Positions 8,201 through 62,934 of a stretch of 64,000 nt of DNA are shown here, piece by piece; positions within the stretch are counted from its first letter, which is position 1, and each line of letters begins with the position of its first letter. Position numbers and translations under genes: made by a program. Location: contig NW_019211459.1 in NCBI RefSeq assembly GCF_002443255.2, forward strand, positions 5,036,075 to 5,100,074, in the 5' to 3' direction. The stretch comes from Varroa destructor. Its lineage: Eukaryota > Arthropoda > Arachnida > Mesostigmata > Varroidae. Under the pieces are notes generated by a model. That model was not told where the DNA came from. It made no database searches and saw only the letters and a program-made list of their open reading frames with translations.

Positions 8201-8316
8201 GATAAGTCAATATTGACAACGAAAATTGTGTGATAGTGAGTGCGGCTACAAACATGTGCATCAACCTTTCCTGAGGTAAGCTATACTATCGATAGCGCGC
8301 CCTACAGGTGAAAGGA

Positions 8317-10434
8317 ATGCCTCCGGATATTGCCCATAACAATCGAACAGCGTCCGATGTTGCAAACATACAAAGTTCGGTGGAGACAGCGTCCGAGGAG
8401 ACGACCTCGACCTTCGCAGCAACCCCATCAGTGCACCACCGGTTCGAGGATGACCGAACGCGCATCTCCGATGATGACGACATTGTAGTGCTTGCACACC
8501 GCAATCTGATCTACCGTGACGACAAGAAACTTAAATGGCCTGAGGAAGAAGTTGTTGATGACGAAGAGGAAGAGTATATCGTTGATGAAAAATATCGGAT
8601 GGACGATCGTAACTTTCGACATCACATATGCGAGGTCGGTGGCTGCTCAGATGCCCGCTGCGGAGAGAGGAGAGGAAAGAGTGTCGGCGAGTTGAAAGCT
8701 ACAAAAACCCCAAGATTGGATAAAATCTCTAGAGATATGGCTGAGATGAAATCTAACATTGCTGCGCCGAGCACTCCGGTTGTGGCTGGCGAAACCAAGC
8801 ATAAAGAAGTAGTTCCAGCTAAGGACGTCAAGGACATCCCTAAGCCTAAAGTTGACATTGCTGAGGACGATTCCAGACGAAAGAAGAAGCTAATGCCAGA
8901 AGAGATCCGGAAGAAGGTCACAAAGGGATTTATTTTAAGGCAAGGGTCGGAACATGAGTTGCCAGAGGAGGAAAAAAGTGCGAGCGGTGAGGACAAAAAG
9001 AAGGCGCCGCCAGAGGAAAGTAAAAAGGCGCCGCAAGAGGAAAAAAAGAAAAAAGTGTCGTCTGAAGAACCTCGTAAGGTAAAGGTGAAACTGGCTGATA
9101 AAGAAATGGCAGGCCCGGAAGAAAGTGAATCAGAGAGTGGCAGTAAGGAGGTAGATCAAAAACAAAAACCGCCCGTTACCGATAAACCGCAGATAGAAAG
9201 TCCAACAGCCATTGTGACTCCTGTAGATGACACTAAACGAAAGGCAGTTCGTGACACCGTAACTACGAAGCAGAAACCACCAGTAAGTGAAGAGCAAAAA
9301 CAGAAAAGTTCTGTTATACTGCCTAGTGAAAGTTCTGTAGTTTCCCGTAAAGTTGATATTTCTAAAGAGGAAACTGATGAAAAAAGCAAACCAACTCGTC
9401 AAAAATCTTCTGGAGAAAAAACGAAAGCATCTAGAGGGGCTACACTCCCTTCCGTCGAGCCAAAACGCAGAAGAAAGTCTCAGGACTCTAGAAAAAAGGA
9501 AACGAAAGGCATGAAAAGGGGCTCCGTTGCGCCGCTTTCACGACGATTCTCCAAGCCGCGTAAGGCGCTTACCCGAGGCCAAATCCGAAGGAAAGTGACG
9601 AAGGGTTTTTTTGTGCGACAGTCAACAGATAATATGGTATCAAATGCACAACGAAGTGACACCAGAAGTAAAGGCCCTCGAGAAAACAGATCTGAACCTG
9701 CAGAAAAAAAGCTTGCAAGACCTGAAGGAGGAAGAAGTCAACTTAATGAGGAAGACCAAAAAAGATCTACACAAAGAGAAAAAATGCAGCGTTCTAAAGA
9801 AGTTTTTCGGGGATCATCGTCTGTAAAAAAGGTGGAAAGAGTATCTCTTAAAGAAAATGCCCAAGAAGAAGGATCCGATATTATGAAGCAATCGTTTCCA
9901 GAAGTTAAACATGAAGGTCCCATTAAGCTTCAGTTAAGTGACGTCCGGCCAGCGAGGGGTAGCAAGGGTGAACAAATGGAACGTCGAGCTCGTTCAGGTT
10001 CCGAAACACCGCCTAATAAGGCAGAGAAGAAAAAAATACTTGATACACCATCGGATCTAGATGATATAGTCCAAAGGGCCACTTGGGCTGGTTCCCCTAC
10101 ACCAGTTCCTTACAATATCAATGGGCGTCGGAAAGGAAAAAAGGAAGCCGAAAAAGCGCAGAAAAAAGGGTCCTCCGGTTCTGATGAGGTACGAGGTGTT
10201 TACGGAGCAAAACTTAAGGTCGAGGACACTAAAAAAGGACCTAGTAAAGAGAAATCGGACGGAGATGAAAAATCATCCTCAAAACATGAAACCGCTAAAG
10301 ATTATGGATCACCTTTAGGTGAGACGTCGGTCGTAACAATACCAGGGAAGCCAGCAGAAGATGGTTGTAGCATTAGGCCCGAAGACCAATCGCAGGCTGC
10401 CCTTGAAACGCCTTCTAATTCAGACAAGCGGTAA
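8317..10434 (+). CDS. Large Lys/Glu/Ser-rich, probably disordered protein with a duplicated KVTKGF motif
   Basis: This is a 705-codon open frame, far longer than chance allows. I chose ATG 8317 (G at -3) because an in-frame TAG lies at 8293. CCTACAG at 8301-8307 could be a splice acceptor opening this exon, making it the coding exon of a longer transcript. From the N-terminus: acidic patches (DDDD at 52-55, a Glu/Asp run near 76-91); a small HHxC-x4-C-x4-C cluster at 102-115; then a long low-complexity Lys/Glu/Ser/Pro region. Residues 195-209 (EEIRKKVTKGFILRQ) recur at 421-435 (GQIRRKVTKGFFVRQ). Basic clusters near 185-200, 382-394 and the C-terminal third could be nuclear signals. No enzyme domain, signal peptide or membrane segment is visible. 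The TAA stop lies inside a weak donor (CG|GTAAAA); splicing from it to the CT-rich acceptor at 10944 would add only about one residue. Family and function are unknown. The long frame and internal duplication support it being real. Confidence 0.85.
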   Translation: MPPDIAHNNRTASDVANIQSSVETASEETTSTFAATPSVHHRFEDDRTRISDDDDIVVLAHRNLIYRDDKKLKWPEEEVVDDEEEEYIVDEKYRMDDRNFRHHICEVGGCSDARCGERRGKSVGELKATKTPRLDKISRDMAEMKSNIAAPSTPVVAGETKHKEVVPAKDVKDIPKPKVDIAEDDSRRKKKLMPEEIRKKVTKGFILRQGSEHELPEEEKSASGEDKKKAPPEESKKAPQEEKKKKVSSEEPRKVKVKLADKEMAGPEESESESGSKEVDQKQKPPVTDKPQIESPTAIVTPVDDTKRKAVRDTVTTKQKPPVSEEQKQKSSVILPSESSVVSRKVDISKEETDEKSKPTRQKSSGEKTKASRGATLPSVEPKRRRKSQDSRKKETKGMKRGSVAPLSRRFSKPRKALTRGQIRRKVTKGFFVRQSTDNMVSNAQRSDTRSKGPRENRSEPAEKKLARPEGGRSQLNEEDQKRSTQREKMQRSKEVFRGSSSVKKVERVSLKENAQEEGSDIMKQSFPEVKHEGPIKLQLSDVRPARGSKGEQMERRARSGSETPPNKAEKKKILDTPSDLDDIVQRATWAGSPTPVPYNINGRRKGKKEAEKAQKKGSSGSDEVRGVYGAKLKVEDTKKGPSKEKSDGDEKSSSKHETAKDYGSPLGETSVVTIPGKPAEDGCSIRPEDQSQAALETPSNSDKR

Positions 10435-21079: not shown

Positions 21080-21425
21080 CTGCAACAGGATGAGCAGAAA
21101 ACCAGGACAAATATCAGTTATAGCACCGTTCGCAGTGAAATACAGAGATGTTTGATTTCTCTTCAACACAGCTATGTTGCTAAAGCATTGATTGAACTGT
21201 ACACGTTGATGCACATAAAATGTTGCTATCTTTTTCGTACTGCCCATTAAGCTATGGCATTTTCTAAAAAATATATTTCAAAAATATAAAAATGGAATTT
21301 CGAAAAAAACGATCCTATTTTTGCTTGGATCATGATTAATAAGTCAGTTGTTTCACATTACCAGACGCTGGGTACAGATATTATTAACCACGCAACGATT
21401 TTCTCGCAGAAAGGAAACCGTTTAC

Positions 21426-21694
21426 CAGAAATCGTTGGCGGGCCTCTTCCTTCTGACGAGCAGCCTTCTCGCGTCGGTCAATATCAGCCTGGCTAGGGGT
21501 ATTATTGTTGTCGTTCTTTGAGGCCAAAGGCTTCTTCCGGAATCCCTGACACTTTGGCCCTACCGTGGATATCGTCTTCTTGACTTGCGGCTTCGTATCT
21601 TCATTCTCCTTCCAGCCGTTCTCCTTTAGCCTCTCGATTGAAGCAAAACCGTCGCGCACTTTTTGGATAGGCATTGAAATCATTTCCCAAAAGC
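21426..21694 (-). CDS. DLGAP-like gene, GKAP-domain core exon (FWEM motif)
   Basis: This exon opens at a good acceptor (CTTCTGCAG) and completes a phase-1 Gly codon. It then reads FWEMISMPIQKVRDGFASIE, LKENGW and a basic linker. This corresponds to the hallmark DL(D/E)GFWDM...LxxxxW block of GKAP/DLGAP proteins. The second half (QADIDRREKAARQKEEARQRFL) is a charged helix like the C-terminal helix of HURP. The donor CTG|GTAAAC at 21425 ends it in phase 0. GKAP-domain proteins are either postsynaptic scaffolds (DLGAP1-4) or, for DLGAP5/HURP/Mars, spindle microtubule proteins used in chromosome congression. The assignment rests on motif order and matched intron phases. Confidence 0.85.
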
Positions 21695-22964
21695 CTGCAG
21701 AAGCGAGTAGATAATAACACAGTGTTTAAGTTACATTGGAAACAACTACAAGAATTGTAGCAAAAAAGTGCCAATACGAAGCGCAGGTTAGGTCGAGGAA
21801 AAAAGGGTAGTCAGGTATAAATGGCTTACGTGAAGTCCAGCTGGATAACAGTAAGGGACCTCACATTGTTCTCATGTTGAACATTAGCCTTAGAAATATA
21901 TTCTTTTAGTTCGAACTGCAGGGACGCTCAGTTGCGTTGCTAGCTGAACTGAATATTACTGACTGCTTTCAGAAATTTACGTAAAACATAATTATTTATT
22001 ATAGAGGCAAAACCAGTCGATATTATAAACGAATATATACGCATCAGGCAGATTCACAAATGAAATTTCTGGCCGAAATAATTGGCGCAGTTGCTCGTTG
22101 GGATATATCTGCACAATTCGGTTTACTAAGAATATGCATCTGAAAATTCGGTGGATGTGGGGTGACCGTTAACGCGCGAGTGATACCTCGTTGCTATGTC
22201 CCCGACAGCCGAAGAGAAACCTCACGAACATCTCATTGATATGATAGCGATTTGATCTTTCAGGTCGAAGAACTTACTCGAAATCCAAGCTCGGCAAACG
22301 TCTATATTAGGAATATTTCAAAGGTCAAGGTTATGAGCATACGACGAACGACTATTACTAGCCATTCGCTCAATATACGCTTAGCCTATACCGTAGTTAA
22401 AGCAAACAAGCCTCGAGGATTCGATAATGGAGAGATGGAGGTTGCGTAAACATGTATGACGGTCTCATTTTGATCTGCTGAGAAATCAGCGGTAGACATC
22501 AAGGCAAAGCTATCGCCACGTCCGTAACTCCGTAACGGTTGCAGTGATAGATAAATTAGCCGGTAACAGGACTTCATTAACCAGCGTAACGTACAATTAT
22601 ACAATTAATTGACTGACACTGGCTAAAGGTGATGAAGAGAGAAGTTACATAGATATCAATGTATGCTACGTACCGCAACGGTGACCTCTGCCTCTCCATA
22701 AATCCATAGTATGCTTCAATTAATTCCTTACTTACTTATTCTAATGTAGGAATCTAGTTCCCGTTTCCGGATTCTAACTTAGCCCGTGTACGTATGATGA
22801 CAGTCACGCGTTACGACAACATCAAGTGGATACTGCTTTCTGTAACACAATCGAGCTCGATTCAAGTTCGACCTAACGCTTCGTGCCTAGACGCAATCGA
22901 TATTTCGCCTGATAGTCATTGTGGATCAGAAAATTGATGCATTAAACTTCGTTTCACTACTTAC

Positions 22965-37917: not shown

Positions 37918-38445
37918 TTACAAATCAGTAGGAACCACCTGTTGCTCAAGCTGAGGGGACGGCAGTTGTTTGACGTCTTCATTGCTTCGATGGTCGGGAA
38001 CCGGCGACTCAACGGGTGAATCGGATGCAGGAGTCGAATCCGCCGGCGTTGGAGGCAGATGGTCGGGATTGACTCCATCGAGGCACGTCTTAGCTAGTTT
38101 AGTTGTTGGCTTGACCGGTTGTTCAGCTGTAGGTACAGTGGGCACCGCCCGGGAGTGTATACTATACTCAGTTGATCCTCCATCTTTCTTTTGCGTGTTG
38201 TCTTGCGTGTCACCACCGCTCTCGTTTTCTACGTGGCTATTTTCGGTAGCGTCGACAAGCTCCGGCGGAGGTTCCTTACAAACGCTTTTTTCCTCAGTGA
38301 TCTCTTCAACTGAGGTGACTTCAACCTCGATACAAGGTTCTGGGGCGTCACATGGTGGTGGCGGAGGAAATGAATTCACGTCACACGTTGGGATGGGGAC
38401 GGATTCACACGGCCGGATCTCGTCAACACAAAGGTCGGTCGACGC
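37918..38445 (-). CDS. Pro/Ala/Glu repeat gene, terminal coding exon
   Basis: The exon opens after CTGCAG at 38446 and runs 175 codons to a stop at 37918. A possible branch site (CCTAAC) lies just upstream of the acceptor. It encodes a non-repetitive tail with five prolines (SFPPPPPCDAPEPC), acidic stretches (VEVTSVEEITEEKS), several Cys, and Ser/Pro-rich motifs near the end (PPTPADSTPASDSPVESP). It enters in phase 0, matching the donor of the repeat exon across a 421-nt intron. No folded domain is recognised, and it is likely disordered. Confidence 0.75.
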   Translation of the reverse strand, partial: ASTDLCVDEIRPCESVPIPTCDVNSFPPPPPCDAPEPCIEVEVTSVEEITEEKSVCKEPPPELVDATENSHVENESGGDTQDNTQKKDGGSTEYSIHSRAVPTVPTAEQPVKPTTKLAKTCLDGVNPDHLPPTPADSTPASDSPVESPVPDHRSNEDVKQLPSPQLEQQVVPTDL

Positions 38446-38866: not shown

Positions 38867-40488
38867 CGGAGCAGGGACCGTGGGTGCTTCGACTGGTGTG
38901 ATCGGGGTCTCCGCAGGCGGTGCAAGAATAGCGGAAGCCTCGTTTGAAGCAACCGGACTAGCGGCCGGAGCTTCATTAGAGGCGTTGTTAACCTGCACAG
39001 GCGCCGCAGGTCCTTCTGCGGGCGTCTCGACCGGCGCTGCTAGGGCTGCTTCTACCAATGGAGGGGCCACTGGTATGATAGGTAGTGCCTCTACAGGAGT
39101 AGCAGAGCCTTCTTCCTGGGCAGCGATAGTCCCTGGAAGAGTCTGAGAGGGTATAGCCGGCAGGGCGGAAGCCTCTGTAGAGGTAGCACGGGTTTCGGCT
39201 AGAGTGGATGCAGCTGAGGGAGCTACAAGAGCGGCTGGAATCTCCGTTGGGGTAGCGAGCGTTTCCATAGGTGCAGCCGGGGTCTCTACTAAAGCAGCGC
39301 TAGGTGGCACTTCGGTTGGAGCAGGCGTAGGTGGCACTTCGGTTGGAGCAGGCGCAGTTGGAGCTTCGGCTGGAGCAGGCGCAGTTGGAGCTTCGGCTGG
39401 AGCGGGCGCAGTTGGAGCTTCGGCTGGAGCGGGCGCAGTTGGAGCTTCGGCTGGAGCGGGCGCAGTTGGAGCTTCGGCTGGAGCGGGCGCAGTTGGAGCT
39501 TCGGCTGGAGCGGGCGCAGTTGGAGCTTCGGCTGGAGCGGGCGCAGTTGGAGCTTCGGCTGGAGCGGGCGCAGTTGGAGCTTCGGCTGGAGCGGGCGCAG
39601 TTGGAGCTTCGGCTGGAGCGGGCGCAGTTGGAGCTTCGGCTGGAGCGGGCGCAGTTGGAGCTTCGGCTGGAGCGGGCGCAGTTGGAGCTTCGGCTGGAGC
39701 GGGCGCAGTTGGAGCTTCGGCTGGAGCGGGCGCAGTTGGAGCTTCGGCTGGAGCGGGCGCAGTTGGAGCTTCGGCTGGAGCGGGCGCAGTTGGGGCTTCG
39801 GCTGGAGCGGGCGCAGTTGGGGCTTCGGCTGGAGCTGGCGCAGTTGGGGCTTCGGCTGGAGCTGGCGCAGTTGGGGCTTCGGCTGGAGCTGGCGCAGTTG
39901 GGGCTTCGGCTGGAGCTGGCACAGCTGGGGCTTCGGCTGGAGCTGGCACAGCTGGGACTTCGGCTGGAGCAGCACAGCTGGGACTTCGGCTGGAGCAGCC
40001 ACAGCTGGGACTTCGGCTGGAGCAGCCACAGCTGGGACTTCGGCTGGAGCAGCCACAGCTGGGACTTCGGCTGGAGCAGCCACAGCTGGGACTTCGGCTG
40101 GAGCAGCCACAGCTGGGACTTCGGCTGGAGCAGCCACAGCTGGGACTTCGGCTGGAGCAGCCACAGCTGGGACTTCGGCTGGAGCAGCCACAGCTGGGAC
40201 TTCGGCTGGAGCAGCCACAGCTGGGACTTCGGCTGGAGCAGCCACAGCTGGGACTTCGGCTGGAGCAGCCACAGCTGGGACTTCGGCTGGAGCAGCCACA
40301 GCTGGGACTTCGGCTGGAGCAGCCACAGCTGGGACTTCGGCTGGAGCAGCCACAGCTGGGACTTCGGCTGGAGCAGCCACAGCTGGGACTTCGGCTGGAG
40401 CAGCCACAGCTGGGGCTACTGCTGGTGCAGGCGCAACCGTAGCAGGTGTAGCTGGAGGAGCCTCGACATCCGCAGTAGGTGCCTCGAC
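38867..40488 (-). CDS. Pro/Ala/Glu tandem-repeat exon, frame broken by a 1-nt deficit
   Basis: A clear acceptor (TTTGTTACAG) opens at GTC GAG GCA CCT. A clear donor (CCG|GTAAGC) closes it, and both introns are phase 0. The first part encodes VEAPTADVEAPPATP, then 16 nonapeptides VPAVAAPAE. The second part encodes about 24 nonapeptides APTAPAPAE. A non-repetitive Ala/Pro/Thr/Glu tail follows (EALPIIPVAPP..., EAPTVPAP). At 39963-39988 one unit has 26 rather than 27 bases, a single C missing, which shifts the frame between the two halves. The exon is 1,622 nt; 1,623 would keep phase. As written, translation would run into a Gln-Pro-Lys-Leu-rich frame and stop at 39289. The intended protein is an extended, acidic Pro/Ala polypeptide. 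Assembly error in the repeat is the likeliest cause. Confidence 0.75.
39303..40435. repeat. 27-bp coding minisatellite, about 41 units in two sub-arrays
   Basis: Units of 27 bp are nearly identical within each block. A proximal block (40435-39990) has 16 copies carrying CAGCCACAGCT on the plus strand. A distal block of about 24 copies includes some 15 exact copies carrying GCGGGCGCAGTTGG. The 26-bp unit sits at the boundary. Because 27 is divisible by three and the unit lacks stops, several frames on both strands stay open for about 390-410 codons. Such homogeneous arrays are usually length-polymorphic. Confidence 0.95.
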
Positions 40489-40579: not shown

Positions 40580-40690
40580 CGGTCTCGGTTCAGCGGTGGG
40601 AGGCTCTGACATTGGCAGGGGAGGCAGAGGGTCCGTTTTAGCAGCCGGTTCCTTCGATGTTTCAGCTGCAAGTGTAGCACCTAATTCAGC
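40580..40690 (-). CDS. Pro/Ala/Glu repeat gene, 37-codon internal exon
   Basis: The acceptor TTGGTGTAG and the donor CCG|GTAAGG bound exactly 37 codons, phase 0 at both ends. They read AELGATLAAETSKEPAAK, then DPLPPLPMSEPPTAEPRP. Composition (Ala, Glu, Pro) matches the repeat exon. Introns on either side are 210 and 91 nt. It could be skipped without changing frame. Confidence 0.85.
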
Positions 40691-40900: not shown

Positions 40901-41002
40901 CTCAGGCTTGGCTGCGTGAGGCACCGATGTTAATACGGGCCGTGGCACCGAATTCGTCCTAGCAACTGTTTCCTTTGCTACTCCAGTTGCGGCTGGTTCT
41001 GT
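40901..41002 (-). CDS. Pro/Ala/Glu repeat gene, 34-codon internal exon
   Basis: The acceptor CGTCTTTTAG and the donor GAG|GTAACA bound 34 codons in phase 0. The start is TEPAATGVAKETVART, the end VPHAAKPE. Size, phase and composition match its neighbours, and it could act as a cassette exon. Confidence 0.83.
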
Positions 41003-41196: not shown

Positions 41197-41475
41197 CAGA
41201 GGGCCTACGCAGTGGGCCACCGTCGAGGAACCCATTAACGCAGCTGAAGCTACTGCTGATGGTTTCGGCGCAGTCGGCGTTAAAAGTGTCGCCGGGGCAG
41301 CTGGCGAAGCATCAGCAACAGCAGCAGCTGAGGCCGGAATATCCGTAATGGATGGAGCAACCCGGATCGGCCGAGACGCCTCCGGCGCAGGAGAAGGAGG
41401 CTCCCCGGGAAGGAGAGCTGGGTGCGCATTGGGATGACCAACGTAATGTGCAACCATTGAAATCTGGTCCGCCAT
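41197..41475 (-). CDS. Pro/Ala/Glu repeat gene, alternative first coding exon (MADQ...)
   Basis: ATG at 41475 (context GATATGGCG) starts 93 codons ending at the donor CTG|GTGAGA in phase 0. It begins MADQISMVAHYVGHPNAHPA, then becomes Ala/Pro-rich (EPPSPAPEASRP; PASAAAVADASPAAPATLL). An in-frame TGA lies 30 nt upstream. All frames from the nearest good acceptor-like site upstream (CGCTCAG) also meet stops. This therefore looks like a true translation start from its own promoter rather than a continuation of the 48.5-kb exons. A weak in-frame acceptor (ACGAG|CAA) would be needed for the other view. This form lacks the myristoylation signal. Confidence 0.75.
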
Positions 41476-61627: not shown

Positions 61628-62881
61628 ATCCAGCAGCGTGTCTGTGTTTAACACCAAATAAAAATCCGATTTTTAACAGTTGAAAAGCCGCTGTCCCTGT
61701 GTATTTGATTCACCTGTTCCGCTTTAAGGATTTCCAATAGAGCTTTACAGATGCAGTGCCATACATGCATTTATTCATTGAAGTGATTTGTAGTTGCTAG
61801 TTCAATGTCACACGCGCGAAGTCCTCTTGATGTTGCCTATATGAGACACCTCGGTCAGGTTTTGTCAGCACAAATGTCCTTCAAGGCTCCCAGCACAAAG
61901 GTCCCCGGACCTTTAATGTGTAACTGTTGTTGCTACAACTCTGTCTCTAGAGATAACCATAGAATGTTAAGTAACTGAATTTCCCTAGAAAAGTTTTAAC
62001 TAGAAGCAATTTCTATACTCATCGAAGTACTTACAGTGGACGCGCTCGCATTTATCGATTACCTACCCCTACTGAAGTATCGCAGTTGGGCACTCAGACG
62101 ACGCCGACGACCATAGCATACCAAAGCAGTACTTCGGCGCTCTCTCCCTTTCTGTGTAACTAACGTTATTCCACCCTCTCGGCGGGCATCTACAATTATC
62201 CTAGCACATATTTTGCGTATTCGTCTTTGTAGATTGCTTGCTTTTATTTTTCTGTCGTTGCTTCCGGAGTTAATTACTGTTGTCGATTACTCGACAGCTT
62301 CGTTGACCACGCCGTCCATTTCACGTGATCAGTGAGCGGTGAATGGGTCATAACCGGTTTGACTGGGCTCGTTCTGGGGCAGTTGAGTCTAAAGATAACT
62401 TCTACCACTACTGCTCTGCTGTCTCCGCCGTTGTCGTTCGACCATCAGATCATCAGGCAACAAGCGGCTCAAAAAGGCGGAGGGTAGCCACCACCTACAA
62501 GAGCACCAGCATGGAGTATTCAGTTGCTCGGACTAGTGGCCGTCCCAGTATCTAAGGGCAAAACGCGTCCGCTAACCAAACGCGCCTCTCCGTTACACAA
62601 CGCTCTACAGGCTTAAAACGCCTGCGGCTACGTAGATTTGGCTTGATTCGGAATCTCCTAGCCACCAGAAAGAAACAGCATCATCAACGTCGATGATGGG
62701 ATCAGCCGTTTCAGTAAGAACAAGATAAACCTAACAAGATGCTAGGTTCCCATCTTTCAATAGATAGAAAGGGGATTCGCTATCGAAGCATGAAAGTGAT
62801 AACTAGTAGCGCCAAGGAAGCGCCAAAGTCAGACGAATCAAGACTGACCATTTAAGTTGTTACTATTGCTGTGACTTTCGT

Positions 62882-62934
62882 GGGGTAGGGTGGGGGTGGT
62901 GGTGGGGTAGGGTGGGGGTGGTGGTGGGGGGGTA
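62882..62934 (+). repeat. G-rich tandem repeat (two 22-bp units plus a G7 tail)
   Basis: GGGGTAGGGTGGGGGTGG begins each of two exact 22-bp units (62882-62903 and 62904-62925), followed by GGGGGGG. At least six runs of three or more G lie close together, enough to form a G-quadruplex on the plus strand. Confidence 0.9.

What the first reader, a model, noticed from the sequence alone, without database searches (positions are those of the whole stretch)
39963..39988. One missing base at a repeat junction splits the reading frame of the Pro/Ala/Glu gene
The unit between the two sub-arrays is 26 bp (one C fewer than its 16 neighbours). Both flanking introns are phase 0, yet the exon is 1,622 nt, one short of a multiple of three. 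Upstream of the junction the sensible frame is VPAVAAPAE; downstream APTAPAPAE is in another frame. Restoring frame needs exactly one base at this unit. This is either an assembly artefact in a minisatellite or a natural truncating allele. Any automatic annotation will mis-predict this gene.
Basis: seen in the sequence. Interest (0 to 1): 0.75.

Follow-up and report, generated by a model that had tools for sequence, protein, structure and literature searches.

The report
Likely assembly slip in repeat gene
In a bee-mite gene that codes for a long run of nine-residue repeats, one repeat unit is a base short and breaks the reading frame; this is most probably a sequencing or assembly error, but a real broken copy of the gene is not excluded.

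Summary
A hand-modelled five-exon minus-strand gene has only phase-0 introns; exons 1, 2, 3 and 5 are multiples of three, exon 4 (40488-38867, 1,622 nt) is not. Exon 4 holds a 27-bp coding minisatellite: 15 identical units, one 26-bp unit, then 24 units of 27 bp. Sequence before the 26-bp unit makes sense in one frame, sequence after it in another. As assembled, the product is 563 aa with a basic 233-aa shifted tail.

A 309-aa Varroa jacobsoni 'calphotin-like' protein matches the post-array part and exon 5 in the downstream frame, 308 of 309 residues. The window is therefore Varroa, probably V. destructor (inference). That species' published assembly used Illumina contigs of one haploid male, gap-filled with PacBio RSII reads of pooled mites. 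The array's two longest perfect runs (416 and 442 bp) are about as long as its merged short reads (409 +/- 61 bp). An assembly error is likeliest (0.7); a natural frameshift allele with MUC1-like anatomy remains possible (0.2). I saw no reads and could not confirm which assembly this is.

The parts
41197..41475 (-). Coding exon 1, 279 nt, from ATG, P/A-rich
   Evidence: open in frame 0 only, GT donor, length a multiple of three
40901..41002 (-). Coding exon 2, 102 nt
   Evidence: open in frame 0 only, AG/GT ends
40580..40690 (-). Coding exon 3, 111 nt
   Evidence: open in frame 0 only, AG/GT ends
38867..40488 (-). Coding exon 4, 1,622 nt, holds the minisatellite; length is 2 modulo 3
39991..40395 (-). 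Upstream sub-array: 15 identical 27-bp units, AEVPAVAAP
39965..39990 (-). The 26-bp unit at the boundary between the two sub-arrays
39317..39964 (-). Downstream sub-array: 24 units of 27 bp, from AEVPAVPAP through AEAPTAPAP to TEVPPTPAP
37918..38445 (-). Coding exon 5, 528 nt with stop; its splice to exon 4 in the downstream frame is the one in the V. jacobsoni protein model

Best explanation
The gene is a real Varroa gene for a Pro/Ala/Glu/Val-rich, probably disordered protein with a nonapeptide coding minisatellite. The 26-bp unit is most probably a one-base consensus error, made where short reads could not span or correct the array and long single-molecule reads supplied the sequence. In the animal the exon would then be read in one frame throughout. 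Shown: the unit, the open exons and splice-site ends, the two sensible frames, the match to Varroa jacobsoni. Inferred: that exons 1-3 join the array in the mRNA, that the window is the V. destructor reference assembly, that this array was a filled gap, and that the base loss is not in the animals.
For: Only exon 4 of five breaks the phase-0 pattern, and only one of the 40 units listed has an odd length. The sensible frames on the two sides are the same unit-phase of homologous repeats. The V. jacobsoni protein P0001 confirms the downstream frame and the exon 4-exon 5 splice, 308 of 309 residues. Its model starts right after the array, as expected if the array was not assembled in that short-read genome (333 +/- 56 bp merged reads); that step is inference. 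PacBio RSII reads of 1,207 pooled females filled 84.4% of the gaps of the V. destructor scaffolds by PBJelly, and 'polish', 'Pilon', 'Quiver' and 'error correct' occur 0 times in the main text. The array's two longest perfect runs, 416 and 442 bp, are about as long as the merged short reads. Among exon 4 pieces the longest exact match at a one-base offset is 5 bp, so misregistered overlap or unequal exchange is a poor source; a plain one-base loss is simpler.
Against: No reads were seen. No other unit of the array has an odd length, which is clean for a fill with long reads of that kind. The lost base lies in a run of two, not in a long homopolymer. The long reads went through proovread, which by the title of its reference corrects PacBio reads with short reads, so the fill need not have been raw. 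Merged reads at the long end of 409 +/- 61 bp could span either run, so the array need not have been a gap. The window was not compared with the V. destructor assembly itself: the own-genome search did not complete.
Confidence: 0.7

Rival explanations
1. A natural frameshift allele, hemizygous in haploid males and perhaps fixed in a clonal lineage. It replaces the C-terminal part of the protein by a basic tail of about 25 repeats of LQPKLQLRP type and removes exon 5 from translation.
For: The base is missing in an otherwise regular array. From 39331 to 40415 the array is open in all six frames, so a shift inside it gives a long new tail, here 233 aa with calculated charge about +46 at pH 7, where the proper 366-residue reading of that side of exon 4 has about -39. 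The same anatomy is documented for human MUC1: a shift in one unit and a stop shortly beyond the array (PMC5843638, passages).
Against: The published assembly method makes an error more likely beforehand. No population data were available. The open exon 5 and post-array frame do not decide, since a recent allele would show no decay; the two Varroa species differ by only 0.38%.
Confidence: 0.2
2. The true protein is the 309-aa model of V. jacobsoni that starts after the array; the array lies in untranslated sequence and the unit length does not matter.
For: NCBI's model P0001 starts at the Met whose codon is at 39268, just past the array. No protein with exons 1-3 was found at the lengths searched.
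Against: Exons 1-3 are open in one frame (39 of 5,000 Markov sequences are), have GT-AG phase-0 splice sites and P/A-rich composition; the pre-array stretch scores +1.34 bits per residue in that frame and negative in the others. 39 of 40 units keep 27 bp.
Confidence: 0.05
3. The 26-bp unit is real and expression copes with it: -1 ribosomal frameshifting, a cryptic intron in the array, or an alternative start that reads the downstream frame throughout.
For: The downstream frame is open across all of exon 4 and beyond (40540-38855), and the frames need a shift in the -1 direction.
Against: The only XXXYYYZ heptamer in exon 4 is at 39195, past the array. The GTs inside the array score -0.97 or lower on a crude donor matrix that I wrote from general knowledge, against 6.44 to 8.70 for the four modelled donors; the best other GT in exon 4 scores 3.51 and is single. 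The downstream frame reads Cys/Ser/Arg-rich in the upstream array (-0.06 bits per residue) and in the pre-array stretch (-0.45), unlike the rest of the protein.
Confidence: 0.05

Closest known systems
Human MUC1 VNTR frameshift (neoprotein of kidney disease ADTKD-MUC1)
   Same: One odd-length unit in a coding minisatellite shifts the frame; the stop comes shortly beyond the array and the C-terminal domains are lost (PMC5843638, passages; here)
   Different: MUC1 units are 60 bp and the described mutation is a C insertion in a 7-C run, followed in families; here units are 27 bp, one base is lost in a run of two, and nothing confirms it outside one assembly. No relation of sequence is claimed.
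Calphotin (Drosophila Cpn) and arthropod 'calphotin-like' models
   Same: The sister-species protein bears this name in NCBI; both are Pro/Ala/Val-rich (the Drosophila composition is recalled, not tested)
   Different: No leucine-zipper heptad pattern in the reading with the junction masked; no Pfam match at E 0.01 for the three pieces of the gene given. Varroa lacks eyes (recalled), so a photoreceptor role is doubtful. The name looks compositional.
Indel errors in gap-filled hybrid assemblies
   Same: A repeat about as long as or longer than the short reads, in a species whose gaps were filled from long reads by PBJelly
   Different: Only one odd-length unit in the array; not shown from reads, and not shown that this stretch was a gap

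Membership tests
Coding-VNTR frameshift allele (MUC1 type) | one unit of a coding array changes the length by a number not divisible by three | tested here: met
   26 bp against 27 bp
Coding-VNTR frameshift allele (MUC1 type) | array open in the shifted frame, stop just beyond it | tested here: met
   563-aa product with 233-aa shifted tail
Coding-VNTR frameshift allele (MUC1 type) | present in reads of individuals | not testable with these tools
   no reads held; own-genome search did not complete
Calphotin | leucine zipper near the C-terminus (recalled) | tested here: not met
   no L-x6-L-x6-L-x6-L in the reading with the junction masked
Calphotin | Pro/Ala/Val-rich composition (recalled) | tested here: met
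   A 245, P 197, E 86, V 81 of 871 unmasked residues; composition alone is weak
Calphotin | sequence homology to Drosophila calphotin | not tested
   no direct comparison made; the only protein hit was V. jacobsoni, within their length limits

The most novel reading that the evidence does not exclude
V. destructor carries, perhaps fixed in its clonal invading lineage, a frameshift in a coding minisatellite that swaps an acidic Pro/Ala/Glu repeat tail and a Cys-bearing C-terminus for a strongly basic repeat tail, an invertebrate counterpart of the MUC1 frameshift protein.
Probability: 0.15. Interest if true: 0.5.

Novelty: not a real feature. Interest (0 to 1): 0.22.

Why it matters
If it is an error, it is a concrete and checkable fault in a gene of an economically important mite, and a warning that coding minisatellites in hybrid assemblies can break gene models. 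If it is real, it would be a natural MUC1-like frameshift in an arthropod.

Tried and rejected
Programmed -1 frameshifting: the only slippery heptamer in exon 4 is past the array, at 39195. Cryptic intron in the array: in-array GTs score -0.97 or lower. Unequal exchange or misregistered read overlap as the source: the longest exact match among exon 4 pieces at a one-base offset is 5 bp. Selection test on unit-to-unit changes: 4 synonymous and 7 non-synonymous along all 24 downstream units in the proper frame, 3 and 8 in each other frame; not informative. Over units 2 to 22 alone, a subset chosen after seeing the result, the 3 changes are all synonymous. Old pseudogene: exons 1-3, the post-array part and exon 5 are open (39, 6 and 6 of 5,000 Markov sequences are); the short pre-array piece proves nothing by this test (1,745 of 5,000).

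Papers: search for four repeat peptides, 0 papers. 'Calphotin' with 'Varroa', 0 papers. 'Calphotin' alone, 32 papers, 20 seen as a listing; passages of one (PMC8256857) only mention calphotin-like in a honey bee. A search for calphotin's structure words gave nothing that I used (listing of 5 of 202). Search for a HiFi V. destructor assembly: 2 papers, neither on Varroa by title. Searches were seen as listings (10 of 46 and 10 of 22); one paper of each was then read in passages. tRNA and Rfam scans of the window: 0 matches each. That the two perfect runs are cut to read length and the true copy number is larger is suggested and not tested.

Full report
What is there. The window has no N. A 27-bp tandem array, 41.7 copies, lies at 39310-40435. 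It is inside exon 4 of a minus-strand gene that I modelled by hand from open frames and GT-AG sites: exons 41475-41197, 41002-40901, 40690-40580, 40488-38867 and 38445-37918 (stop), with introns of 194, 210, 91 and 421 bp. Exons 1, 2, 3 and 5 are 279, 102, 111 and 528 nt, all multiples of three. Exon 4 is 1,622 nt. No RNA evidence was available; only the exon 4-5 splice is backed by a protein model.

The odd unit. Of the 40 units listed are 27 bp and one, 39990-39965, is 26 bp. It lies exactly between the 15 identical upstream units (AEVPAVAAP) and the downstream units, which grade from AEVPAVPAP through AEAPAVPAP to AEAPTAPAP. It differs from its upstream neighbours by one base in a run of two.

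Frames. Upstream of the unit the P/A-rich reading is frame 0 of the exon; downstream it is frame 2. Measured against the composition of exons 1-3 and the C-terminal part, the pre-array stretch scores +1.34 bits per residue in frame 0 and negative in the others; the upstream unit scores +1.38 in frame 0 and -0.46 and -0.06 in the others. The score of the post-array stretch is partly its own reference, but P0001 supports that frame independently. As assembled, the spliced reading gives 563 aa, the last 233 shifted (calculated pI 12, charge about +46), ending just past the array.

Whose gene. The only protein found in three searches is P0001, 309 aa, NCBI name calphotin-like, Varroa jacobsoni, E 2.4e-62. 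It equals the window's reading from the Met codon at 39268 through the exon 4-5 splice to the stop, 308 of 309 residues. So the window is Varroa. Because it differs by a residue from the V. jacobsoni model it is probably V. destructor; this is inference.

Why an error is likeliest. The paper on both genomes (PMC6773775; passages) reports merged Illumina reads of 409 +/- 61 bp for V. destructor and 333 +/- 56 bp for V. jacobsoni, Newbler contigs from a single haploid male of each, and for V. destructor gap filling by PBJelly with RSII reads of 1,207 pooled females, trimmed by proovread. 'Polish', 'Pilon', 'Quiver' and 'error correct' occur 0 times in the main text; other words for polishing were not searched. 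The array's two longest perfect 27-bp runs are 416 and 442 bp, within one standard deviation of the V. destructor read length and above the V. jacobsoni mean, so the array is the kind of place where short reads fail and long-read sequence may be used. A paper on gap closing says that PBJelly needs sufficient coverage and that the accuracy of such tools depends on read quality (PMC7476103; passages). I did not see a gap table or any read, and did not confirm that the window is Vdes_3.0.

Why a real allele is not excluded. The array is otherwise regular, and MUC1 shows that such shifts occur and give the same anatomy (PMC5843638; passages). Lack of decay after the shift does not help, since the species are 0.38% apart.

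Function. The protein is probably disordered and acidic in its repeat part, with a Pro/Glu/Cys-bearing C-terminal exon (7 Cys in 175 residues). The function implied by the name calphotin is not supported: no zipper pattern, and the animal is eyeless (recalled). I take it as a structural or binding repeat protein; this is inference with low confidence.

The statement on open frames is now limited to 39331-40415, the wording on uncorrected long reads is withdrawn because proovread was used, the point that longer merged reads could span the runs is added as evidence against, and the annotation claim is softened.

Noticed in passing
39378-39793 and 39973-40414: The two longest perfect 27-bp runs, 416 and 442 bp, are close to the merged Illumina read length of the published V. 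destructor assembly, so the copy number may be collapsed.
   Followed up: partly
21387-21725, minus: Open frame with a GKAP domain (Pfam PF03359, E 1.3e-09): a DLGAP/HURP-type gene neighbour (family name recalled).
   Followed up: no
8296-10431, plus: A 712-residue open frame with no Pfam match, K/E-rich as far as I saw, over a 24-bp repeat at 8989-9050.
   Followed up: no
62880-62929: G-rich 22-bp repeat, 2.3 copies, 100% matches.
   Followed up: no
39331-40415: The array is open in all six frames here (the two main unit types checked), so a frameshift inside yields a long new tail and gene finders see long false ORFs on both strands.
   Followed up: yes
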